In this document: positions 412 through 21,883 of the stretch, one piece after another
How positions within the stretch are numbered: position 1 is the stretch's first letter
How the letters are laid out: every line of letters starts with the position of its first letter
Source: a virus
Strand: one strand, 5' to 3'
DNA length: 64,000 bases
Virus record (IMG/VR): IMGVR_UViG_3300021962_006679
Location: 17,329 to 81,328 of that record
Made by a program: the position numbers and the translations under genes
The notes under the pieces: generated by a model
Databases searched by the model: none
What the model saw: only the letters and a program-made list of their open reading frames with translations
What the model was told of the DNA's origin: nothing

Positions 412-486
412 GGCCCCATCGTCTAGCGGTTAGGACGCTGGCCTTTCACGCCGGAAACACGGGTTCGATTCCCGTTGGGGTCACCA
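412..486 (+). tRNA. tRNA-Glu (TTC)
   Basis: Complete cloverleaf with encoded CCA. The 7-bp acceptor stem pairs 412-418 with 476-482 (one G-U), and the anticodon stem 438-442 pairs with 450-454. The loop CTTTCAC carries anticodon TTC (445-447). T-arm GTTCGATTC is present. Confidence 0.95.
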
Positions 487-500
487 ATTCAGGTATTGTT

Positions 501-755
501 ATGAGCGAATTTAAACTTGGTATATTTAGACTATTAAAACGCATCATAGGTGGCAGCAGTGTCCTCCTTGCAGTTGTTTATACCATAGGACATATTTTTA
601 TTGCCATGCTCTGCAACAATTTAATTACTGGAGCAGAGTTTACACTAGCAGCACTAGATGCGATTATAGAGCCCTGCATTAACGGTGTATGGTTTTATGT
701 TCTCCATAAATTATGGAGATCATTTTATAAAGATGCTACTGTATTCGAAAAATAA
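501..755 (+). CDS. DUF2061-like small membrane protein
   Basis: An 84-residue protein with two hydrophobic segments (about residues 17-40 and 48-68). Its architecture matches DUF2061 proteins: basic N-terminus, central acidic E before the second helix, and a C-terminal Y-x-L-H-x-L-W motif. Such proteins occur in marine T4-like phages; function unknown. The start at 501 is the first ATG after tRNA-Glu; a longer in-frame reading would run through the tRNA and is unlikely. Confidence 0.65.
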   Translation: MSEFKLGIFRLLKRIIGGSSVLLAVVYTIGHIFIAMLCNNLITGAEFTLAALDAIIEPCINGVWFYVLHKLWRSFYKDATVFEK

Positions 756-758
756 ATA
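751..758 (+). promoter_or_regulatory. T4-late-like octamer, leaderless geometry
   Basis: AATAAATA followed by 5 nt and the ATG of the HNH gene at 764. In T4 late promoters the octamer covers about -13 to -6, which would put +1 on the A of this ATG. Confidence 0.4.
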
Positions 759-763
759 TTTGC

Positions 764-1318
764 ATGATTGGCTTACGAACTCTAGTCCTCAGCGCAAACT
801 ATATGCCGGTGAGTATATTTCCACTGCATACTGTACCTGTAGAAGATGCTATAACAAGAATTTTTAACGGCAACATGCATGCCGTGTTTAATTACGATCG
901 CAAAATTGGACACCCATTGCTAGATATGTACTGGCCCAGTGTAGTTGCTCGTAACAAGAGCACCCGCATAAAAGAGAGTGTCAGGTTTGCTAGAGACACT
1001 GTGTATTACAGAGACCATGGCATTTGTCAGTACTGTGAAACTCCACTTGATATAAAGGAAACTACATATGATCATGTTATTCCCCGCAGTCGTGGTGGCG
1101 AGCATGTCTGGGAGAATGTAGTTATGAGTTGCCGTAGTTGTAACACTGCAAAGGGAAATAAGATGCCCCGGGATACCTTTGTTCCACGGCAAAGACCGTT
1201 TAAGCCTACCTATTGGCAGTTGTTAAACAATCGTCGTAAATTTCCTATCATGCTTGATCACCCTAGTTGGGTGAATTTCTTTGGCGATTGGGAAGCAGAG
1301 ATATTAATATCAAAATGA
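764..1318 (+). CDS. HNH endonuclease
   Basis: 184 residues. The N-terminus (RTLVLSANYMPVSIFPL) and the C-terminal HNH domain match stand-alone phage HNH nucleases: zinc-type CQYC, then YDHVIPRSRGG, then N and CRSCN. It is probably a homing or DNA-processing nuclease. No Shine-Dalgarno is visible; AATAAATA (751-758) lies exactly 5 nt before the ATG, which predicts a leaderless late transcript. The stop overlaps the next ATG (ATGA). Confidence 0.8.
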   Translation: MIGLRTLVLSANYMPVSIFPLHTVPVEDAITRIFNGNMHAVFNYDRKIGHPLLDMYWPSVVARNKSTRIKESVRFARDTVYYRDHGICQYCETPLDIKETTYDHVIPRSRGGEHVWENVVMSCRSCNTAKGNKMPRDTFVPRQRPFKPTYWQLLNNRRKFPIMLDHPSWVNFFGDWEAEILISK

Positions 1319-2766
1319 AATTTGAATGTTTAGAAAACATCAATGATGAAACACGCGATGTTGTTATAGTCACAGTTCCATGGACTGACAGTAGTATTCC
1401 ACTAATGGCACCAGCACAACTTAAACCTATTGTTGAAAGTGCTGGCATGAGTTGCTTGGCAACCGATATAAATGCTGAAGTGTTTAGATGGACACAGACA
1501 CACGAGAACGTTACTCCGTTATTGGATTTTTTCTTTAATGAAAAATTAAGTGATGTTGTTAAAGATGACTTGTTTAATTTATTTAAAAATATAGCAGAGC
1601 AAATACTCGCTTGGAAGCCCAAGATAGTTGGACTTAGTTTGTTCAGTTATGTTTGTCAAACAAGTGCAAAATGGATATCATGGTTTATAAAAAAAATAGA
1701 TCCCAATGTAAAAATTATTATTGGTGGCGCAGGATGTCTTCCAACTTTTACAGGCCCTAGTGAGTTTGCAAAAAACACAATCGCAGCAGGATTAGTTGAC
1801 TACCATATCCGTGGTGATGGTGAGCATGCACTATATCAATTTCTAATAGATAACAAACAATACATTGGAATCAATAGCCTTGAATGGCGTGAATTGTCTA
1901 TAGATGAGATGCGACAATTGCCAATGCCAGATTATGATAATTATAAATTTGATGTGTATAATAAAAAAGCGTTACCGTTAGTTGGTAGTCGTGGCTGTGT
2001 ACGAAAATGTACATTCTGTGATTATATTGCTAATTGGAAAAAATTTAATTGGCGAATGGCTGATGATATTTTTGCTGAAATGCAGAGTCAATATAAAAAA
2101 TATGGGATACGATATTTTAAGTTTCAAGACAGTTTAACAAACGGAAATATGAAAGAGTTTACAAAACTAACCCAATTGCTTAGTGAATACAATAGGACAA
2201 ATCCTAATGAAAGTTTTAGGTGGAGTGGGTACTATATTTTTAGAGAACACAATGCAAATACTGCAAACGAATGGAAATTGGTATATGAAAGTGGTGCTGA
2301 AAATTTAGCAGTTGGCATTGAAAATCTTAATCAACGTATACGCTTTAATATTGGTAAAAAATTTAGTAATGAAGCCATTGATGTACACTTATCCTATGCA
2401 AAGAAATATAACATTACTTTGCAGTTATTAAACATTGTTGGTTATGTAGATGAAACTCAAGACGATATAGACTATATTAAACAATGGTTGGTTAACCATG
2501 TTGAATACAAAGACACCTTGTTTATACAATGGGGAGGCACTTTAGGCATCTTTCCTAATACCTGGTTAGAACGCAATTTTGATAATCTAGGTATAGAAAA
2601 AATAGACGAATCGCCACAAGGATGGATAAACAAAAGTATAGACAGTACACCAGCAAAAAGAGCACAATGGGCAAAAGATCTAAATGAATTAAGCACTAGT
2701 TTAGGGTATAAAGTTGCTGATAACCTTGACAATCATTATCTTTTAGAGTTATTGATAAATGACTAA
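1315..2766 (+). CDS. B12-binding-type radical SAM protein
   Basis: 483 residues. The N-terminal half resembles a cobalamin-binding Rossmann domain (VVIVTVPWTDSS at the start; IIIGGAGC near residue 135), but no clear DxHxxG is seen. The radical SAM core has the cluster motif CVRKCTFC (CxxxCxxC) near residue 227. Such enzymes perform radical methylations or rearrangements; the substrate is unknown. The start at 1315 overlaps the HNH stop by 4 nt. It heads a three-gene overlapping operon with a beta-rich protein and an SGNH protein, suggesting modification of a glycan or surface molecule. Confidence 0.8.
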   Translation: MKFECLENINDETRDVVIVTVPWTDSSIPLMAPAQLKPIVESAGMSCLATDINAEVFRWTQTHENVTPLLDFFFNEKLSDVVKDDLFNLFKNIAEQILAWKPKIVGLSLFSYVCQTSAKWISWFIKKIDPNVKIIIGGAGCLPTFTGPSEFAKNTIAAGLVDYHIRGDGEHALYQFLIDNKQYIGINSLEWRELSIDEMRQLPMPDYDNYKFDVYNKKALPLVGSRGCVRKCTFCDYIANWKKFNWRMADDIFAEMQSQYKKYGIRYFKFQDSLTNGNMKEFTKLTQLLSEYNRTNPNESFRWSGYYIFREHNANTANEWKLVYESGAENLAVGIENLNQRIRFNIGKKFSNEAIDVHLSYAKKYNITLQLLNIVGYVDETQDDIDYIKQWLVNHVEYKDTLFIQWGGTLGIFPNTWLERNFDNLGIEKIDESPQGWINKSIDSTPAKRAQWAKDLNELSTSLGYKVADNLDNHYLLELLIND

Positions 2767-3181
2767 TTTCAATGAATGTAAAGTTAAAATTATTTTCAAA
2801 TATCACAGTTGTAATAACAAACTTATGACTGTATTAGTCGATGATATACTTCTCAAACCATCTGATGATAATTATGCCATTTTTGAAAAAGAGATAAATT
2901 TGCCAACAGAACTAGTTATAAAAACTGCTGGCAAGAATCACAAATACGATACAAAAATTGATGCGGCAGGGAACATATACGAGGATCTGGCTGTACAAAT
3001 AGAAAGTATATCGCTGGACTCGTTTGAATTATCTGATGTGTATCTTCATCAAAAAATAAAAATTTTAACCGAATCTGGAGATGAATATACTACAAGTTAT
3101 TTTGGATTCAATGGCACTATAATGTTAAATTTTTCAGAAAGCAATGTCTTTTCACAAGTTTTAAAGGAAAACACACAATGA
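2759..3181 (+). CDS. Hypothetical beta-rich protein
   Basis: 140 residues, no recognised family. The alternating hydrophobic pattern suggests a beta-sandwich (possible carbohydrate-binding fold). Its organisation resembles two other proteins here, at 43596-44054 and 48809-49072: an initial x-V-K-x-x-x strand, a short loop, then a segment on 'SLDSFELSDVYLHQKI' comparable to 'SMDGIELEHLPYMHSYQE'. It overlaps the radical SAM gene by 8 nt and the SGNH gene by 4 nt, so it is probably co-translated with them. Confidence 0.55.
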   Translation: MTNFNECKVKIIFKYHSCNNKLMTVLVDDILLKPSDDNYAIFEKEINLPTELVIKTAGKNHKYDTKIDAAGNIYEDLAVQIESISLDSFELSDVYLHQKIKILTESGDEYTTSYFGFNGTIMLNFSESNVFSQVLKENTQ

Positions 3182-3969
3182 ATAAAAATATATTAATTAG
3201 TGGATGTTCGTTGGCAATGGGATATGGTCTTCCTGAAACTAGAAATAATCCAAAAAATTGGCCTAATCAAGTAGTAAATACAATTTACCCGGAAGCACAC
3301 ATAACCAATATTGCAGAGCCTGGGTACAACAACGACACAATATTTCTCAAAACATCAGAAGAACTTTTAAAAAACAAATATGATTGTGTTATTGTAGAAT
3401 GGTCAGAAACTACACGGTTAAATTTTAACATAGGATTAGAAATATATAATACATTATCTAGGGTTGCTAATGACCATGACTTTAATTTAGTAAATGGACA
3501 AACAATTAAAGCAGACTGGTTGTATAAAAATATTAAACAAAATATAGTTAGAATTTCTAACGATCATTGGTTCATTTTGAACATGGTAAGATATTTAAAT
3601 ATCTTAATCAGATTACAAAAGCCACATGGTGAAATATTTTTTGTAAACGGCGGCGGCCATTGGCCTGACAATTATTTTAATAGACAGAAGTCCTGGTTCG
3701 ATGCTGATGATGCTTATACAAAAAAAGAAATCCTACAAATGGATTTCAGAGATGATGAAGATATAGCAAAACTTTATAACAAAATACATGATGATTATGA
3801 AAATGCTGGCGGAATCCATGAAGATCTTTGGCTTAATTTATATTGGTCATTGCATAGATCAAAAATAGATACAATATCTGATACAGATCTGCATCCAGGA
3901 TTATTATCGCAAGATAAATTTGCCAAAGAGTTTATTTTAAAAATTCAAAATATTTACCAAAATATTTGA
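3178..3969 (+). CDS. SGNH-hydrolase-like protein (copy 1)
   Basis: 263 residues. Block I is GCSLAMGYG (S at about residue 12 as nucleophile), a GxxND-like block is GYNNDT, and the C-terminal D-L-H-P supplies the likely catalytic Asp/His. SGNH enzymes are usually esterases acting on acylated glycans or lipids. One of five SGNH-type proteins in the window; only distantly similar to the tandem pair at 25.5-27.2 kb. Shine-Dalgarno AAGGA precedes ATG 3178. Confidence 0.65.
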   Translation: MNKNILISGCSLAMGYGLPETRNNPKNWPNQVVNTIYPEAHITNIAEPGYNNDTIFLKTSEELLKNKYDCVIVEWSETTRLNFNIGLEIYNTLSRVANDHDFNLVNGQTIKADWLYKNIKQNIVRISNDHWFILNMVRYLNILIRLQKPHGEIFFVNGGGHWPDNYFNRQKSWFDADDAYTKKEILQMDFRDDEDIAKLYNKIHDDYENAGGIHEDLWLNLYWSLHRSKIDTISDTDLHPGLLSQDKFAKEFILKIQNIYQNI

Positions 3970-3994
3970 CAGGTAGTAAATAATATAGTATTAT
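3966..3994 (+). promoter_or_regulatory. sigma70-like promoter for tRNA-Thr
   Basis: TTGACA (3966-3971), 17-bp spacer, TATTAT (3989-3994). It ends 10 nt before the tRNA-Thr gene and overlaps the stop of the SGNH gene. Confidence 0.65.
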
Positions 3995-4003
3995 TATAAC
4001 AAT

Positions 4004-4079
4004 GCTGGCGTAGCTCAGTTGGTAGAGCAGGGGTTTTGTAAACCTCAGGTCCGCGGTTCAAGTCCGTGTGCCAGCACCA
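4004..4079 (+). tRNA. tRNA-Thr (TGT)
   Basis: Complete cloverleaf with encoded CCA. Acceptor GCTGGCG (4004-4010) pairs with TGCCAGC (4069-4075). The anticodon stem GGGGT/ACCTC encloses TTTGTAA, anticodon TGT. Confidence 0.95.
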
Positions 4080-4105
4080 CTTTTTTAACTTAATAGGCTT
4101 GTACT

Positions 4106-4309
4106 ATGGAAGATGTAGTAAAAGGTGAGTTAGGCGACCTTATGGACGATAACGATTGGGCTATTATCTTTGACAAAGAAGGTAATGTTAGAGGTCTTTT
4201 TATTCCTGACGGAATGCCTAATGGTGCAGTAGTTCCTGAAAACATTCTTAAAATTTTAGAAGAGGTTGGGATAGGTGAAGATGACTTTGCAGACCCTGTT
4301 GTGCACTGA
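4106..4309 (+). CDS. Small acidic hypothetical protein
   Basis: 67 residues, strongly acidic, with a core reading IIFDKEGNVRGLFIPDG. No family recognised; the composition suggests a small phage regulator or DNA mimic, but that is a guess. Its stop overlaps the start of the following secreted protein by 1 nt. Confidence 0.6.
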   Translation: MEDVVKGELGDLMDDNDWAIIFDKEGNVRGLFIPDGMPNGAVVPENILKILEEVGIGEDDFADPVVH

Positions 4310-4749
4310 TGCGTAAAATTGTTCTTGCTTTTTTAGCATTATTTTTTATTAGTACTACTCCTGGATACAGTTTTGAAGTTATGGGTAGTAAGCGTGTGCC
4401 AACTGTTGTTCCAAGAGATACCTACCTTAGAGATCCACAATATGTAAGTGCTCCAGTCGTTAGTGCAGATCGTGCTTATGAAGTAACTTACTTTGATCAA
4501 ATGGGGCATATTTGTGCTCATGAGCAAGTTCCTATTAACCCTGTAGACTATAGAAACTTTTGGGACCAATTGTTTAATCCCAGAGGCCCTGTATATACCG
4601 AGCCACAGTACAACTGTTATGATACAGCAGAAAGACAAGAGCAACGAGTCTTTGTAGGGTATATGGTTACATTTGAATATCTTGGCGAATACTATACTAA
4701 ACTAGTAGACTATCGCCCAGGAAAATATATTAGAGTTTTAATAAAATAG
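4309..4749 (+). CDS. Secreted protein, 17-kDa-antigen-like C-terminus
   Basis: 146 residues with an N-terminal signal peptide (MRKIVLAFLALFFISTTPGYS). The C-terminus (GYMVTFEYLGEYYTKLVDY then PGKYIRV) resembles the last segment of the surface-antigen/glycine-zipper 2TM family of Proteobacteria, although the glycine zipper itself is absent. Two Cys (about residues 65 and 103) could form a disulfide. Probably exported to the periplasm; role unknown. Confidence 0.6.
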   Translation: MRKIVLAFLALFFISTTPGYSFEVMGSKRVPTVVPRDTYLRDPQYVSAPVVSADRAYEVTYFDQMGHICAHEQVPINPVDYRNFWDQLFNPRGPVYTEPQYNCYDTAERQEQRVFVGYMVTFEYLGEYYTKLVDYRPGKYIRVLIK

Positions 4750-4750
4750 G

Positions 4751-4778
4751 TTGACGCATTCATAAAATTTGCTATAAT
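4751..4778 (+). promoter_or_regulatory. Extended -10 sigma70-like promoter
   Basis: TTGACG (4751-4756), 16-bp spacer ending TGC, TATAAT (4773-4778). Transcription from here would run into the small genes at 4812 and 4987 and the tRNA-Ser/Gly cluster. Confidence 0.75.
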
Positions 4779-4811
4779 AGGTATATTGTTAAAAACAAAC
4801 ATGGAAGGACC

Positions 4812-4994
4812 ATGACGATGTTAGCGAATGATTTGGATTATGCAGCGAATGAGGCAATTCATGGCTTGCAACTTAACTGGAATGATGCAGTAAAGTTTGT
4901 TTGCCGTAATGCAAAAGTTGACCAGCGTGAGGCATCAAAAGCCCTAGAGTCTATTTTAACTGGTTACAAGCGGAAAGAATACGCAATTGACTAG
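4812..4994 (+). CDS. Small hypothetical protein
   Basis: 60 residues, helical, no recognised family. The Shine-Dalgarno (GGAAGGAC) is 4-6 nt before ATG 4812, directly downstream of a strong promoter, so early expression is likely. The last 8 nt overlap the next gene. Confidence 0.6.
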   Translation: MTMLANDLDYAANEAIHGLQLNWNDAVKFVCRNAKVDQREASKALESILTGYKRKEYAID

Positions 4995-5220
4995 TCTTGA
5001 TAATGTTATCAATGCACGGGTTGACTTTTTAGCCCGTGCAGTAATAGCAAAAATCGAAAGAATTTTAGACAAGCATGGAGATCTAGATAGATACGATGTC
5101 TATTGTGAATGGTATGAAGACGATGCTACAGAGGATGATATTGAAATATGGCTACGTGATCGCAGCGATGATAGCCGTATCGGTCCTCTTGATCTTGCGT
5201 CCATGATGAGTAAACAATAA
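4987..5220 (+). CDS. Small acidic hypothetical protein, TTG start
   Basis: 77 residues, acidic, predicted helical, no recognised family. No in-frame ATG exists near the 5' end; TTG at 4987, overlapping the upstream stop by 8 nt, is the best start and implies translational coupling. The gene ends 10 nt before tRNA-Ser. Confidence 0.55.
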   Translation: MTSLDNVINARVDFLARAVIAKIERILDKHGDLDRYDVYCEWYEDDATEDDIEIWLRDRSDDSRIGPLDLASMMSKQ

Positions 5221-5230
5221 GAGTTAAATT

Positions 5231-5322
5231 GGATGGTTACCCAAGAGGCTGAAGGGGCGGGATTGCTAATCCTGTAGGGCGGTTTTGCTGTCGCGAGAGT
5301 TCGAATCTCTCACCATCCGCCA
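5231..5322 (+). tRNA. tRNA-Ser (GCT)
   Basis: Class II tRNA with a long variable arm. Acceptor GGATGGT (5231-5237) pairs with ACCATCC (5312-5318), discriminator G, encoded CCA. The loop TTGCTAA gives anticodon GCT, which reads AGC/AGT, the Ser codons that appear preferred in this phage's genes. Confidence 0.95.
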
Positions 5323-5330
5323 TATTTTGA

Positions 5331-5405
5331 GCGGGCATCGTATAATGGCCATTACGTGGCGTTGCCAACGCTAGGATAGGAGTTCGATTCTCCTTGCCCG
5401 CTCCA
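5331..5405 (+). tRNA. tRNA-Gly (GCC)
   Basis: Acceptor GCGGGCA (5331-5337) pairs with TGCCCGC (5395-5401), discriminator T, encoded CCA. Anticodon loop TTGCCAA gives GCC. It lies 8 nt after tRNA-Ser. Confidence 0.95.
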
Positions 5406-5422
5406 AAAAAATTGGTTAGACT

Positions 5423-5430
5423 GCTAAATA
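5423..5430 (+). promoter_or_regulatory. T4-late-like promoter octamer
   Basis: GCTAAATA, 20 nt upstream of the HNH gene at 5451, leaving room for the Shine-Dalgarno (ATAGGAGG). Confidence 0.4.
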
Positions 5431-5450
5431 AAATATAGGAGGTCTAACCA

Positions 5451-5882
5451 ATGCCAAAGAGTAATTGTTTAAATTGTAATAAGGAAATTCATTACAATCC
5501 CAGCCAAAGAAGGGGATTATATTGTTCTAATGTTTGTCAACAAGAGTATCGTATAAACGAAGCAGTTGCCACTGGAACTTATACTAAAGCAAACGGATAT
5601 AGTTGGTTCAAGAAGAATACAAAATATGAATGTAGTTGTTGCGGCATAAGTGAATGGCAAGGTAAAGAACTTCGTTTACAGATAGATCATATTGACGGCA
5701 ACAATAAGAACAATGTAATAGAAAACTTTAGATACCTTTGTCCTAACTGTCATACACAGACAGAAACATGGGGTGTCAAAAGTGCTAGTGATGAAGGTAA
5801 ACAAAGAATTAAAGAGGCAGCCAAACTAGGGAGAGCAATACAACTTGGTAGGGTGCCAGAAGGAACAAAATTGGGGGTGTAG
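5451..5882 (+). CDS. HNH homing endonuclease inserted in tRNA cluster
   Basis: 143 residues. N-terminal zinc-ribbon-like cysteines (CLNCN then CSNVCQQEY), a second CSCC pair, then the HNH core QIDHIDGNNKNN and CPNCHTQTETWG: the layout of free-standing phage HNH homing nucleases. It has a strong Shine-Dalgarno (AGGAGG). It lies between tRNA-Gly and tRNA-Asp, and its last codons and stop (5880-5882) fall inside the tRNA-Asp acceptor/D-arm region, an overlap suggesting recent insertion next to a conserved tRNA target. Confidence 0.85.
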   Translation: MPKSNCLNCNKEIHYNPSQRRGLYCSNVCQQEYRINEAVATGTYTKANGYSWFKKNTKYECSCCGISEWQGKELRLQIDHIDGNNKNNVIENFRYLCPNCHTQTETWGVKSASDEGKQRIKEAAKLGRAIQLGRVPEGTKLGV

Positions 5883-5949
5883 CTCAGTTGGTCAGAGCGC
5901 GAGCCTGTCACGTTCGAGGTCGCGGGTTCGAGCCCCGTCACTCCCGCCA
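5873..5949 (+). tRNA. tRNA-Asp (GTC)
   Basis: Acceptor GGGGGTG (5873-5879) pairs with CACTCCC (5939-5945, one G-U), discriminator G, encoded CCA. The loop CTGTCAC gives anticodon GTC. The first 10 nt overlap the end of the HNH gene. Confidence 0.95.
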
Positions 5950-18599: not shown

Positions 18600-19340
18600 A
18601 TGGCCCGTAATGATTACAATAGTACTTATGATGTCCGCGACGTAATGGCAGCGAGTGTGATGGCATATCGCATCAATGGTGATGAATACTGTGCTTTTAC
18701 AGTAGGTGATGACGTTTGGACTGGCAGGGAATCGACTGAATACCGTATTGTTAAACAGGCAAACAAGCATCTGATGCAGTATAGTATGACAGATATGCAA
18801 GTGCCGGTAACTATTAGTTATCCAGTGGGCAACTATTATTTTGATATTGAAGCTGATGAGGAAGACTATGCTGTAGCAGACGAAATGATCAGCTACTACA
18901 GTGGGCTTATGCTCAAGGCAATTAGCGGTAAAATTAACGAGTTTGAAGAGCGTGTACTGGGACTTATAAAGACCGGCACAGTTTCTGTTAAAGACTTTGG
19001 TATTATTGCAAGTCTTCCCAAGAGTTATTTCCGTAGTTTGGAACGGGATGAGGTAGAAGAAAAGCAACGCCAGTTAAGTGACACTAGCGAGTTTATAGGA
19101 CAAATTGGTCACACTGTTGATTTGATTATTAGAGTATTGCGGTGTAATTATATACAGAAACTGAGCTGCTATGTTGTTAATGCAGTCCATAACGGCAACC
19201 TAGTTGTATTTTTTACCAGTACTGGAGAGTTTGAAAACATAGATAGTGTTAGGGTTAGGGCTCGTATAAAGCGGCACCAAACCAGTTCATATCATGGTGG
19301 TAAAGAAACTGTTTTAAATTATGTCAAAAAGATGGCATAA
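18600..19340 (+). CDS. Conserved phage hypothetical protein
   Basis: 246 residues, acidic N-terminal half and basic C-terminal third (VRVRARIKRHQ). Similar proteins occur in marine T4-like phages without a known function. Transcription starts from a sigma70-like promoter, so early or middle expression is likely; the message probably runs into the structured RNA and terminator at 19347-19486. Confidence 0.6.
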   Translation: MARNDYNSTYDVRDVMAASVMAYRINGDEYCAFTVGDDVWTGRESTEYRIVKQANKHLMQYSMTDMQVPVTISYPVGNYYFDIEADEEDYAVADEMISYYSGLMLKAISGKINEFEERVLGLIKTGTVSVKDFGIIASLPKSYFRSLERDEVEEKQRQLSDTSEFIGQIGHTVDLIIRVLRCNYIQKLSCYVVNAVHNGNLVVFFTSTGEFENIDSVRVRARIKRHQTSSYHGGKETVLNYVKKMA

Positions 19341-19346
19341 AAGTTA

Positions 19347-19486
19347 TTAATACCAATCTCGGTATTAACACAAGGGTAGCTATGCCCGCTGACGGCCAGC
19401 CCAGAGGGTCAAACACTAAGAGGGTGTGAGGGCGAAAATAGCAATTACGATAAACGGAAAAAAGCTCGTTTAGGCGGGCTTTTTTC
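19347..19486 (+). ncRNA. Candidate structured RNA ending in terminator
   Basis: A 217-nt gap between genes holds an ordered fold. There is a perfect 8-bp hairpin (19347-19354 with 19361-19368). Then a long-range stem pairs GCTAT-GCCC (19379-19387) with GGGC (19430-19433) and ATAGC (19438-19442), with GAAA bulged out. Inside it are hairpins CCC/GGG (19400-19408) and ACAC/GTGT (19413-19427). The element ends in a terminator (19460-19485). No known RNA family recognised. It could be a phage sRNA or the 3' UTR of the upstream gene. Confidence 0.55.
19460..19485 (+). terminator. Rho-independent terminator of structured RNA
   Basis: A 9-bp stem 19460-19468/19475-19483 (AAAAGCTCG with CGGGCTTTT) and a T-run to 19485, just upstream of the next promoter. 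Confidence 0.85.
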
Positions 19487-19497
19487 ATCTTAAATGG

Positions 19498-19525
19498 TTG
19501 ACGTTATCGTATTCTATGCTAATAT
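19498..19525 (+). promoter_or_regulatory. Extended -10 sigma70-like promoter
   Basis: TTGACG (19498-19503), 16-bp spacer ending TGC, TAATAT (19520-19525). It would transcribe the small gene at 19558 and the coupled nuclease and methyltransferase genes. Confidence 0.6.
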
Positions 19526-19557: not shown

Positions 19558-19815
19558 ATGCTCGGAATGAAATTTACAAATTCTAAAGACCTAGACTTTG
19601 ATGTCCTAATGCCAGGGATTGTTGATGCTTGGTTTTCCTCTAACACTCCAGATGACATTGTTAGGATTTTTGAAACTGCAAGTGGCGATTTCGACTTATG
19701 GATAGGCCGCCAACAGTTTGCCGCTTTCGAAACATTTGAAGACGCCAAGCGTCATGCAGAGTGTTTCGTTACCGTAGAAATTACAGCAGAAGATTTAGGA
19801 GTTAAATTGATATGA
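19558..19815 (+). CDS. Small hypothetical protein, host gene of the cassette
   Basis: 85 residues, acidic, no recognised family. Shine-Dalgarno AAGGACC. Its last codons (VTVEITAEDLGV, from 19768) are encoded within a 35-bp sequence repeated exactly at 21291-21325, where the same reading frame ends VSPI-stop instead of KLI-stop. The gene was therefore probably invaded at its 3' end and restored. The stop overlaps the ATG of the nuclease gene. Confidence 0.7.
   Translation: MLGMKFTNSKDLDFDVLMPGIVDAWFSSNTPDDIVRIFETASGDFDLWIGRQQFAAFETFEDAKRHAECFVTVEITAEDLGVKLI
19768..19802 (+). repeat. 35-bp direct repeat, left copy
   Basis: Exact match to 21291-21325. It begins GTTACCGTAG and ends TTTAGGAGT, and encodes VTVEITAEDLGV at the 3' end of the 85-residue gene. 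The two copies bracket 1488 bp holding the nuclease and methyltransferase genes. Confidence 0.95.
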
Positions 19816-20390
19816 ACGAAATTCAAAAAGTAGCAGATTACATTAATACTCATATGGACTTTCCTAGATTTGCAAGATTATGTGTTGCTTTAGGAAGTCA
19901 AGTAAATGATGCCCAATTACGTTTTATAAAAGCATTGGTTTTTGAACGTAGTATGGAACAATATTCTAAAGGTAAAATTAAGTTTGTAGGTGAAGAAGGG
20001 TGTGACCTTATTATACCAGAGTTAAATGTAAGAGTAGAACAAAAGTATACTGAAGACGCTTTGTTTACGCCTAAAAAAAAGACTCTCAGAGAAAACACTA
20101 AGAGTATTAAACTTATGAACAGTATGGGGACCAATACCCATAATAAGTTGCCGGAAACCTATGCTGATTATTTAATTTTTATTGGGAACCAGGCAGCAAT
20201 GTTATTCTCTAAACAAGATTTAGAGCAACATTTACAGGTTGGAGGAGATGGCATAAGTGCTAATATCCCGACACGCAAAGGAATCCTACTTGCATCGCCT
20301 ATAGACATGGATGCTAACAATCAGACTCAAATAGATTTTATTTCAGGATTTATGAAGTATATTGACAGTTACATACAATCTGTTAAATAA
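19812..20390 (+). CDS. PD-(D/E)XK nuclease, probable type II restriction enzyme
   Basis: 192 residues. A PD-(D/E)XK-type active site is readable as GCDLIIPELNVRVEQK: D65, then E76-x-K78 on the next strand, with E61/E62 upstream. Short stand-alone size, a predicted alpha/beta core and a location immediately before a DNA methyltransferase fit a type II restriction endonuclease. It overlaps the upstream stop (ATGA) and so depends on that gene's promoter. Recognition site unknown; a non-restriction nuclease is the alternative. Confidence 0.65.
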   Translation: MNEIQKVADYINTHMDFPRFARLCVALGSQVNDAQLRFIKALVFERSMEQYSKGKIKFVGEEGCDLIIPELNVRVEQKYTEDALFTPKKKTLRENTKSIKLMNSMGTNTHNKLPETYADYLIFIGNQAAMLFSKQDLEQHLQVGGDGISANIPTRKGILLASPIDMDANNQTQIDFISGFMKYIDSYIQSVK

Positions 20391-20397
20391 TATAGAT

Positions 20398-21264
20398 ATG
20401 TATAAAGTAGAAAACAAAGATTGCATTCAAGGCCTTAAAGATCTTGGAGATGGATCAATTGATTTAATATTCACTGATCCTCCATATGGAATTGACGGTG
20501 ATAAATTAGATGCACACTACAACCGAGACGAAAGCAATGTAGTTCCTGGTTATGTTGAAGTGGCTCTCGAAACTTATGGAGAATTTAGTAAAAACTGGAT
20601 TACAGAATGTGCTCGTGTTTTAAGGCCAGGCGGCAGTATGTACATAGTCAGTGGATATACTAATTTACATCATGTGCTAAATGCACTACATAGTACAGAT
20701 TTACAAGAAGTTAATCATATAATTGCAAAATATACATTTGCTGTTAGTACTACAAAAAAATGGGTTAGTAGTCATTATCATGTATTATTTTGGGCAAAGC
20801 CTGATAAGGGAAAACAAAAGAGAACATTTAACACGAACGTTTTCTATACAGACCAAAAAGACAGTTATCATGATAGACTTACAGTCCAGGACTTGCCACG
20901 AGATTATAAACCTGGCCAGATAAAAAACAAAAACCAATTAAGTGAAGAGTTTATCAAGAAATTTATTTTATACAGTTCTAACAGAGGCGACACTGTACTA
21001 GATCCTTTTTGTGGAGGATTTACTACAGCACGTACAGCATTAAGGTATGGACGCAAATTTGTAGGTTTTGAATTAAATAGCAATGCGTATAATGCATTTT
21101 TACCTACCCTAGATAATGTAATATCTATGGAAGATCCTATACCTGAACAACCAAATCCAGAAGAACTAGCAAGAAGAGAAAAGATGCGAGAAGGTTGGCG
21201 GGCTGATAGACGTAAGCGTAAGGAAAACCCTGTATATGATCCTGGAGGCGTTTTTAAAACTTAA
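20398..21264 (+). CDS. Beta-class adenine/cytosine-N4 DNA methyltransferase
   Basis: 288 residues from ATG 20398. Catalytic motif IV TDPPYGID is near the N-terminus (residues 26-33) and the SAM-binding motif I (DTVLDPFCGGFTTA) is in the C-terminal third, the beta-class order of many type II enzymes. It follows the nuclease by 7 nt, so the pair looks like a complete restriction-modification unit; the methylase would protect phage DNA. No Shine-Dalgarno is visible; translation may be coupled. Confidence 0.88.
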   Translation: MYKVENKDCIQGLKDLGDGSIDLIFTDPPYGIDGDKLDAHYNRDESNVVPGYVEVALETYGEFSKNWITECARVLRPGGSMYIVSGYTNLHHVLNALHSTDLQEVNHIIAKYTFAVSTTKKWVSSHYHVLFWAKPDKGKQKRTFNTNVFYTDQKDSYHDRLTVQDLPRDYKPGQIKNKNQLSEEFIKKFILYSSNRGDTVLDPFCGGFTTARTALRYGRKFVGFELNSNAYNAFLPTLDNVISMEDPIPEQPNPEELARREKMREGWRADRRKRKENPVYDPGGVFKT

Positions 21265-21270
21265 AATTGG

Positions 21271-21325
21271 TTGACAATACACATAAACATGTTACCGTAG
21301 AAATTACAGCAGAAGATTTAGGAGT
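21271..21325 (+). pseudogene. 3'-end remnant of the 19558 gene behind a TTGACA
   Basis: After the methyltransferase, a TTGACA (21271-21276) is followed by the right copy of the 35-bp repeat. Its frame reads VTVEITAEDLGV then SPI-stop (stop at 21336-21338), i.e. the C-terminus of the 85-residue gene without its body. It is either the original 3' end displaced by cassette insertion or the remains of a duplicated gene. A convincing -10 is not present at the right distance. Confidence 0.7.
21291..21325 (+). repeat. 35-bp direct repeat, right copy
   Basis: Exact copy of 19768-19802; see the left copy. Followed by 36 nt and an HNH/NUMOD3 nuclease gene. Confidence 0.95.
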
Positions 21326-21348
21326 AAGCCCAATTTAGTAGCACCTTA

Positions 21349-21356
21349 GATAAATA
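21349..21356 (+). promoter_or_regulatory. T4-late-like octamer, leaderless geometry
   Basis: GATAAATA followed by 5 nt and the ATG of the HNH/NUMOD3 gene at 21362; no Shine-Dalgarno. Confidence 0.45.
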
Positions 21357-21361
21357 GATGC

Positions 21362-21883
21362 ATGAAACACATGCATCATATTATCCCAAAACACGCAGGT
21401 GGCACTGACGATTCTAGTAATTTAATAGAACTTACTATAGAAGAACATTCAGAAGCACATCGTAACTTGTATGAACAGTATGGCAGACAAGAAGATTATC
21501 TTGCCTGGAAAGGACTTGCTGGATTAATAGGCAAGGAAGAAATGTTAAAAGCAAAACTTTCGTTAAACTCGTCTCGTCCTGGAAAATTAAATACCTTTTA
21601 TGGCATGAAACACACAGAAGAAACCAAACGCAAAATATCAGAGAAGAAAAAAGGCGTTAGTATTAAAATGCCTCCAAAGTCTAAAGCACACAAGAAGAAA
21701 CTTTCTGAGGCCAGACGTGCAATGGCTAAACGCTATGTTTTTGAGCATAAGGATGGCAGCACATTTACGGGCACGACTCGTGAACTTTCTGAGATCACCG
21801 GCTCAAATCCAGCAGAACCATGGAAGTTAGTTGTTGGGCAATATAAGACACACAAGGGCTGGAAACTGATTGACTCATTGTAG
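21362..21883 (+). CDS. HNH homing endonuclease with NUMOD3 repeats
   Basis: 173 residues. The N-terminal HNH-type core reads HHIIPKHAGGTDDSSNLI then EEHSEAH. Two NUMOD3-type DNA-binding segments follow (TEETKRKISEKKKG, SKAHKKKLSEARRAM), then a C-terminal helix-turn-helix-like part. The layout matches modular phage homing endonucleases. It lies directly beside the right repeat of the nuclease/methyltransferase cassette and could have mobilised it. Confidence 0.85.
   Translation: MKHMHHIIPKHAGGTDDSSNLIELTIEEHSEAHRNLYEQYGRQEDYLAWKGLAGLIGKEEMLKAKLSLNSSRPGKLNTFYGMKHTEETKRKISEKKKGVSIKMPPKSKAHKKKLSEARRAMAKRYVFEHKDGSTFTGTTRELSEITGSNPAEPWKLVVGQYKTHKGWKLIDSL

What the first reader, a model, noticed from the sequence alone, without database searches (positions are those of the whole stretch)
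19768..21883. Restriction-modification-like cassette between 35-bp repeats that both encode the same gene 3' end, next to a homing nuclease
A PD-(D/E)XK nuclease (D65, E76-x-K78) and a beta-class DNA methyltransferase occupy 1488 bp between two exact 35-bp copies. In both copies the sequence reads VTVEITAEDLGV in frame and then stops a few codons later (KLI versus SPI). So the invader appears to have restored the C-terminus of the small gene at 19558, leaving the original 3' end behind. An HNH/NUMOD3 homing nuclease starts 36 nt past the right copy. This looks like a mobile R-M island that enters a gene 3' end without breaking it, possibly moved by the neighbouring homing enzyme. It could protect the phage from competitors or degrade host or rival DNA.
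Basis: partly seen in the sequence, partly recalled or inferred. Interest (0 to 1): 0.88.

Follow-up and report, generated by a model that had tools for sequence, protein, structure and literature searches.

The report
Phage-carried DNA-cutting and protecting gene pair
This phage carries a restriction-type nuclease gene next to a DNA methylase gene, set between two copies of a 35-letter repeat, and most related phages that carry either gene have lost most of the four-letter word AGCT from their genomes, which suggests that AGCT is what the enzymes recognise.

Summary
Two exact 35-bp copies (19768-19802, 21291-21325) flank 1488 bp holding a nuclease and a beta-class amino-methyltransferase; an HNH/NUMOD3 gene starts 36 nt further on. 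The repeat is the only exact direct repeat of 20 bp or more in the 64 kb.

The nuclease matches no curated family. Its model (pLDDT 87) resembles PD-(D/E)XK restriction enzymes, with moderate scores. A scan of IMG/VR returned 33 loci of this family; 17 also hold the MTase.

New result: phages carrying the nuclease or MTase are depleted in AGCT. Among 63 dereplicated phages found through a neighbouring gene, 7 carriers have pooled AGCT O/E 0.06 against 0.67 in 56 others; the next most different of 136 tetramers has ratio 0.89. The predicted target therefore contains AGCT. Some phages carry the nuclease with no detected MTase. Exceptions exist, and this window itself is only partly depleted.

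The gene beside a 96-97% identical MTase was replaced in place in two pairs of phages.

The mobility story is only partly supported. None of 14 other cassettes tested has comparable repeats, this HNH gene lies beside none of them (one has a different HNH gene), and no empty allele was found.

The parts
19498..19525 (+). sigma-70-like promoter match (TTGACG-16-TAATAT) upstream of the small gene; small gene, nuclease and MTase may be one transcription unit
   Evidence: promoter-like sites in the region are no more frequent than in shuffles (10 found, 11.2 expected), so weak
19558..19815 (+). 85-aa orphan gene; its 12 codons before KLI-stop lie in the left repeat
   Evidence: no relative confirmed in viral contigs, phages or 332 loci held (best E 0.18)
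19768..19802 (+). left copy of the exact 35-bp direct repeat
19812..20390 (+). restriction-type PD-(D/E)XK nuclease, 192 aa; start overlaps the small gene's stop (ATGA)
   Evidence: alignment A1, model pLDDT 87; PDB matches NaeI Z 10.2, 3ndh Z 9.4, DpnI Z 8.3, PvuII Z 5.9; no Foldseek match at E 0.001 or better
20398..21264 (+). beta-class N6/N4 DNA methyltransferase, 288 aa (DPPY at residues 27-30); 7 nt after the nuclease's stop
   Evidence: PF01555 2.7e-31; CcrM 6pbd 4.4e-22; 12 IMG/VR loci at 70-76% identity
21291..21325 (+). right copy of the 35-bp direct repeat, reading VTVEITAEDLGV-SPI-stop
21362..21883 (+). HNH/NUMOD3 homing-type endonuclease, 173 aa; a neighbour, not shown to be part of the cassette
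   Evidence: PF01844 2.3e-4, PF07460 1.3e-4; phrog_655 homing endonuclease 3.6e-19; no relative beside other cassettes

Best explanation
It is a phage-borne two-gene Type II-like restriction-modification cassette. The first gene makes a PD-(D/E)XK endonuclease, the second an amino-methyltransferase; both most likely recognise a site containing AGCT. During infection the nuclease would cut unmethylated AGCT in host or rival-phage DNA, while the phage's own DNA is spared by methylation and, in many relatives, by having lost AGCT. The MTase is the constant part; the nuclease beside it is repeatedly exchanged. The cassette has entered many sites in different phages. In this phage it sits at the 3' end of a small gene between 35-bp direct repeats, best explained as a recent insertion with long target duplication that leaves the small gene's C-terminus readable. 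Shown: anatomy, fold class of the nuclease model, co-occurrence, AGCT depletion, in-place replacement of the upstream gene. Inferred: cleavage, methylation, exact target, timing, purpose, and insertion mechanism.
For: Nuclease fold. MTase family. Pairing: all 12 close MTase loci (7 distinct phages after merging near-identical ones) have an ORF directly upstream; 17 of 33 nuclease loci, not dereplicated, hold the MTase. AGCT, first test: 26 dereplicated carriers pooled O/E 0.19 (138/738) against 0.78 in 48 HAD-gene relatives; 21 of 26 against 3 of 48 below 0.25; lowest of 136 tetramers. Clade-matched test: 7 of 7 carriers against 2 of 56 non-carriers below 0.25, Fisher P 6.5e-8; AGCT ratio 0.09, next 0.89. 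GANTC, the CcrM site (recalled), shows nothing: 0.98 against 0.95. Follow-up: of four low-AGCT loci without the cassette nearby, whole-contig searches found the nuclease for one and the MTase for another. Longer stretches: eight carrier contigs 12/190, 21/144, 1/44, 70/266, 3/158, 0/50, 1/52, 2/38; three non-carriers 242/298, 306/375, 60/127. Replacement: L007/L010 and L011/L012. Insertion: exact repeats; GC of the two genes 0.335 and 0.354 against 0.378-0.403 for five neighbouring genes.
Against: The window's own depletion is partial (79/227), and its nearest relative L016, without the cassette on its 10.9-kb fragment, is as low (12/35), so this phage's value cannot be credited to the cassette. 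Five of 26 carriers lie above 0.25: the window, L007, L112 (15/30, with both genes), L117 and L122. The nuclease-only L118 contig keeps 70 of 266 sites in 100 kb with no PF01555 or PF00145 MTase found, which a plain AGCT cutter should not tolerate. Low-AGCT L272 and L286 have neither gene on their 13.6- and 15-kb contigs. MTase-only loci are depleted on average (0.28) but L150 is not (14/16), so the pressure on AGCT may come from elsewhere. Fold scores are moderate: no Foldseek match at E 0.001 or better. In chloroviruses the restriction enzymes were found not to cause exclusion of rivals (PMC7019647, passage). No empty allele of the window site was found.
Confidence: 0.72

Rival explanations
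1. Anti-restriction reading: hosts of these phages carry AGCT-cutting systems. AGCT loss and the MTase are counter-defences, and the nuclease is a passenger or breaks down host DNA without sharing the MTase's target.
For: MTases without a nuclease of this family occur in low-AGCT phages (L149 0/22, L151 2/19, L153 2/16, L282 5/27), though not in all (L150 14/16, L154 8/23). Site avoidance against host R-M is widespread in phages (PMC6286503, title and passages).
Against: Several nuclease-bearing contigs without a detected MTase show the strongest depletion (3/158, 0/50, 1/52, 2/38), which links the nuclease itself to AGCT; but others do not (70/266, 21/144). 54 of 56 clade-mates without the nuclease are not strongly depleted (35 of the 56 were also searched for the MTase).
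Confidence: 0.2
2. The HNH neighbour is the engine: it cut the small gene's 3' end and the R-M pair was carried in with it by homing-type repair.
For: An intact HNH/NUMOD3 ORF starts 36 nt past the right repeat. A different HNH gene (PF14279 8e-14) lies 51 bp upstream of the L013 cassette. Relative L026 has another two-gene insert at the window's site whose second gene looks HNH-like by eye (no Pfam match).
Against: No relative of this HNH protein lies beside any other cassette among 332 loci held; its only matches at E 1e-4 or better are in two named phages and, weakly, in L271 and L311, away from a cassette. A motif scan found an HNH-like ORF within 2 kb of 1 of 14 other cassettes. Homing does not normally leave a 35-bp target duplication (general knowledge).
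Confidence: 0.12
3. The 35-bp pair is a by-product of assembly or strain mixing in the metagenome rather than a true insertion scar.
For: The record is an IMG/VR contig of 81,328 bases; this arrangement was seen once and no reads are available.
Against: Both copies have different, coherent flanks in frame, and both R-M genes are intact.
Confidence: 0.08

Closest known systems
Chlorovirus restriction-modification pairs (such as CviJI)
   Same: Virus-encoded short-site restriction endonuclease gene adjacent to its DNA methyltransferase gene; orphan methyltransferases also occur (PMC7019647, passages seen).
   Different: Those infect algae; these are phage-like contigs. Nuclease-only carriers with purged sites, and nuclease replacement beside a constant MTase, are not described in the passages seen. 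The review says the nucleases are packaged and thought to degrade host DNA, and were found not to cause mutual exclusion; neither was tested here.
Nitratiruptor phage NRS3 R-M system (R.Nph3I and partner MTase)
   Same: A Type II R-M pair of a phage, characterised biochemically (PMC10734518, passages seen).
   Different: Temperate deep-sea phage with RGATCY methylation; the present enzymes are predicted to see AGCT.
AluI R-M (AGCT)
   Same: Same predicted core site.
   Different: [quoted passage not shown] that it is a C5-MTase is recalled. The window MTase is an amino-MTase of PF01555 without a PF00145 match.
Insertion with long target duplication (Nobusato et al. 2000)
   Same: R-M genes flanked by long direct repeats of target sequence.
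   Different: Described from a comparison of two bacterial genomes (seen only as cited in PMC3031569); here a phage contig, a 35-bp repeat and no empty allele.
CcrM-type beta-class adenine methyltransferases
   Same: Best solved relative is CcrM 6pbd, E 4.4e-22; NCBIfam CcrM E 5.9e-30, far below its cut-off (104 of 830 bits).
   Different: 288 aa against 366 for the solved chain; GANTC is not depleted in carriers (0.98 against 0.95 in non-carriers).

Membership tests
Type II restriction-modification system | Endonuclease with a restriction-type catalytic fold | tested here: met
   PD-(D/E)XK-like model; the eight best-ranked rows are restriction enzymes, with moderate scores
Type II restriction-modification system | DNA methyltransferase encoded beside it | tested here: met
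   PF01555 MTase begins 7 nt after the nuclease's stop; pairing repeated in other phages
Type II restriction-modification system | Nuclease and MTase share one recognition site | tested here: inconclusive
   AGCT depletion goes with either gene, which is indirect; some carriers keep many AGCT sites
Type II restriction-modification system | Cuts unmethylated but not methylated DNA | not testable with these tools
   needs purified proteins
AluI family | Recognition of AGCT | tested here: inconclusive
   inferred from genome composition only
AluI family | C5-cytosine MTase (PF00145; recalled) | tested here: not met
   window MTase matches PF01555; PF00145 is not among its Pfam hits
Insertion with long target duplication | Long direct repeats of target sequence at both borders | tested here: met
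   exact 35 bp
Insertion with long target duplication | Relative with a single copy and no insert | tested here: inconclusive
   small gene has no detected relative; nine syntenic relatives have other content there
HNH/NUMOD3 homing endonuclease (21362-21883) | HNH and NUMOD3 domains | tested here: met
   PF01844 21.7 bits against cut-off 21.4; PF07460 22.3 against 20.4
HNH/NUMOD3 homing endonuclease (21362-21883) | Cuts an allele lacking the insert and is copied into it | not testable with these tools
   no such allele found; needs an assay

The most novel reading that the evidence does not exclude
A set of uncultivated phages wages AGCT-directed DNA warfare. Exchangeable restriction nucleases act on host or rival genomes, and immunity is obtained in three ways: a conserved MTase; purging AGCT from the genome, so that the nuclease can be carried without an MTase; or a solitary MTase as an antidote. 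Restriction without modification, made safe by genome-wide site loss, would be a distinct viral strategy.
Probability: 0.36. Interest if true: 0.85.

Novelty: new variant of a known kind. Interest (0 to 1): 0.68.

Why it matters
R-M systems were reported as rare in phages: nine in 831 phage genomes (PMC4176335, passages seen). Here one nuclease/MTase set recurs in many phage contigs, its likely target can be read from genome composition and tested quickly, and the nuclease changes while the MTase stays. Two questions become testable: how restriction enzymes are exchanged without killing the carrier, and whether a virus can carry a restriction enzyme safely by purging its own sites. The nuclease matches no Pfam, PHROGs, NCBIfam or PADLOC model convincingly.

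Tried and rejected
Empty allele of the window site: sought through the small gene, the upstream gene and the HAD gene. Only the HAD gene gave relatives; nine share the gene order, and none has the small gene, nuclease, MTase or this HNH gene there. Rejected: that the repeats are a general feature of these cassettes. In one search, 14 others gave longest direct matches of 8-12 bp (searching 400 bp on each side and 60 bp inside the genes); two, L005 (11) and L279 (12), exceed their own maximum of 15 shuffles (10), but each has one end inside a gene of the cassette. Rejected: GANTC as target by analogy with CcrM.

Led nowhere: the model of the unrelated upstream ORF of L007 (pLDDT 42) and its profile comparison, so its identity as a nuclease is unproven; Rfam on the possible RNA upstream; the nuclease in bacterial and archaeal genomes (one pattern, 31 matches, none confirmed), phages and plasmids.

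Choices that affect counts. In one search, L007 (MTase with the unrelated ORF) was counted among the 26 carriers, and L098, whose contig ends inside the MTase, among the nuclease-only rows; the six MTase-only rows include L145, which has a nuclease remnant. Near-identical loci were merged at 90% identity. Of the 80 loci, the contigs of 70 were searched for the nuclease (the other ten were judged near-duplicates) and 39 for the MTase; 35 of the 56 non-carriers had the MTase search. Some loci lie on the contigs of the query rows; leaving out L210, L228 and L231, P is 8.2e-6. (80 contigs, no nuclease) had no positive control inside the call; rang in 10 of 16 with the same profile. Other MTase families than PF01555 and PF00145 were not sought in nuclease-only contigs.
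Full report
WHAT IS THERE. The window lies in an 81,328-base IMG/VR virus record. In 64 kb the only other exact direct repeat of at least 18 bp is one of 19 bp. The nuclease's ATG at 19812 overlaps the small gene's stop; 7 nt separate the nuclease's stop from the MTase's ATG. Nuclease and MTase have GC 0.335 and 0.354; five neighbouring genes have 0.378-0.403.

THE NUCLEASE. No Pfam, PHROGs, NCBIfam or PADLOC model matches it convincingly, and its profile finds no convincing PDB sequence (best E 0.13). AlphaFold on an alignment of seven sequences (its own and six relatives) gives pLDDT 87. Foldseek's first hits are DpnI (E 1.5e-3), 3ndh (E 1.1e-2) and NhoI; none reaches E 0.001. The second aligner gives NaeI Z 10.2 (138 residues, 3.2 A), 3ndh Z 9.4 (164, 3.8 A), DpnI Z 8.3, PvuII 5.9; its first eight rows are restriction enzymes. 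The list titles 3ndh only as a restriction endonuclease; that it is ThaI is recalled. D65, E76 and K78 lie on successive strands, as a PD-(D/E)XK site requires.

THE METHYLTRANSFERASE. PF01555, E 2.7e-31; best solved relative CcrM. Nine relatives are 68-75% identical to it along the alignment, from which I infer one shared target.

RELATIVES. The MTase found 13 loci; 12 are 70-76% identical, and all 12 (7 distinct phages after merging near-identical ones) have an ORF directly upstream. The nuclease profile found 33 viral loci: 17 hold the MTase too, 16 do not (not dereplicated). A whole-record search of these 16 and two of the 17 found the MTase only in the two; many records are short fragments. 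In 12 nuclease-only contigs no PF01555 match above cut-off and no PF00145 match was found; two, those of L127 and L128, have weak partial PF01555 matches (family controls rang). In L145 only a C-terminal remnant of the nuclease stands beside the MTase (E 6.8e-6). The nuclease was not confirmed in bacterial genomes, phage records or plasmids.

EXCHANGE OF THE NUCLEASE. L007 and L010 share flanks and a 96% identical MTase. Their DNA similarity stops at L007 4307 and resumes at 4997, almost exactly the span of the upstream gene (4373-5005), and the two upstream proteins are not similar. L011 and L012 share 84-90% identical flanks and a 97% identical MTase, but their nucleases are 23% identical. 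On trees L011 and L012 are sisters for the MTase (100/100), whereas the nuclease of L012 lies in a fully supported clade without L011. The window groups with L110 and L142 by MTase (94/99, with L142 90/80) and with L010, L279 and L096 by nuclease (83/87); several forks are weak.

THE TARGET. A scan of under-represented palindromes showed AGCT at 3 of 158 expected in one nuclease-only phage. Over dereplicated loci, 26 carriers have 138 of 738 (0.19) against 0.78 in 48 HAD-gene relatives, the lowest of 136 tetramers; next is CGCG 0.54, low in controls too (0.68). Because those controls are another clade, I used the last viral scan on a neighbouring gene, a dexA-like exonuclease (name recalled) that adjoins three cassettes. 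Of 80 loci, six had the nuclease nearby, with AGCT O/E at most 0.16; four without it were also very low, and most others lay between 0.4 and 1. Whole-contig searches then found the nuclease in the contig of L263 and the MTase in that of L282; L272 and L286, on 13.6- and 15-kb contigs, had neither. Across 63 representatives, 7 of 7 carriers and 2 of 56 non-carriers lie below 0.25 (Fisher P 6.5e-8); the AGCT ratio is 0.09 and every other tetramer is at 0.89 or more. GANTC is unaffected: 0.98 against 0.95, and no gapped 5-mer palindrome has a ratio below 0.93. Longer stretches, all that were counted: carriers 12/190, 21/144, 1/44, 70/266, 3/158, 0/50, 1/52, 2/38; non-carriers 242/298, 306/375, 60/127. 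The 70/266 is the L118 contig, nuclease only.

WHAT THIS DOES NOT SHOW. The window keeps 79 of 227, and its nearest relative without the cassette is as low (12/35), so this phage's own value is no evidence for the cassette. Five of 26 carriers are above 0.25. Nuclease-only phages still keep a few AGCT sites, so the true site may be longer, or another protection may exist. Host systems or rivals as the source of pressure are not excluded. The modified base is unknown.

THE SITE AND THE REPEATS. Nine HAD-gene relatives share the order of flanking genes and none has the cassette or the small gene there; the place varies: a 57-63-aa ORF, RNA-like stretches, or a two-gene insert in L026. At the dexA site L228 has 671 bp between conserved flanks where L232 has 30, and L279 has 1521 where L256 has 259, so there the genes slot between genes; L108, L216 and L279 have no comparable repeats (L228 was not tested). 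Deleting one copy plus the insert would leave the same 85-aa length with SPI instead of KLI (by reading), which fits insertion with long target duplication, known for R-M genes (cited in PMC3031569, passages). Exact identity suggests a recent event (inference). The direction is not proven.

THE HNH GENE. It matches a phage homing-nuclease group; its first 77 residues are 64% identical to one in Synechococcus phage S-SKS1. No relative of it lies beside another cassette, but an unrelated HNH gene lies 51 bp upstream of the L013 cassette.

LITERATURE. Passages of PMC7019647, PMC10734518, PMC12707154, PMC3031569, PMC6286503 and PMC4176335 were seen. Searches for AGCT avoidance in phages and for phage-encoded restriction with host DNA degradation listed two papers and none; only open-licence papers are held, so this is no proof of absence.

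VERDICT. A real phage R-M-like cassette with a legible predicted target and an exchangeable nuclease; a new variant of a known kind. The mobility claim at this site is plausible and unproven.

Noticed in passing
L026 3841-5645; L214 3205-4979; L258 3290-4941; L235 3351-4999; L212 3337-4963: At the dexA site, and at the window's own site in relative L026, an alternative occupant is a two-gene pair: a 355-432-aa protein plus a small nuclease-like gene (weak HNH match in L258, GIY-YIG-type T5orf172 in L235; the other genes of the pairs that were scanned have no Pfam match). By eye, similar large proteins lie beside the MTase in L129 and between nuclease and MTase in L142.
   Followed up: partly
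window 19341-19490: Possible structured non-coding RNA between the gene ending at 19340 and the small gene; syntenic relatives have other RNA-like stretches there. No Rfam match.
   Followed up: partly
L153 4745-5311: A 188-aa ORF with a possible E-x-K motif (by eye) directly follows a 64% identical MTase: perhaps another nuclease type with the same MTase family. No Pfam match.
   Followed up: partly
L319-L322 (G143); L120: Other palindromes look purged in single phages: AATT 117 of 471 expected in G143, GTAC 0 of 13 in L120.
   Followed up: no
window 20362-20391: Promoter-like match (TTGACA-18-AATAAT, 11 of 12) at the nuclease's 3' end, placed to express the MTase on its own; promoter-like sites are not above chance in the region.
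   Followed up: no
L013 3842-4351: HNH gene (PF14279 8e-14, PF01844 1e-12), unrelated to the window's, 51 bp upstream of the L013 nuclease.
   Followed up: partly
window 412-5949: Five tRNA genes (Glu, Thr, Ser, Gly, Asp).
   Followed up: no
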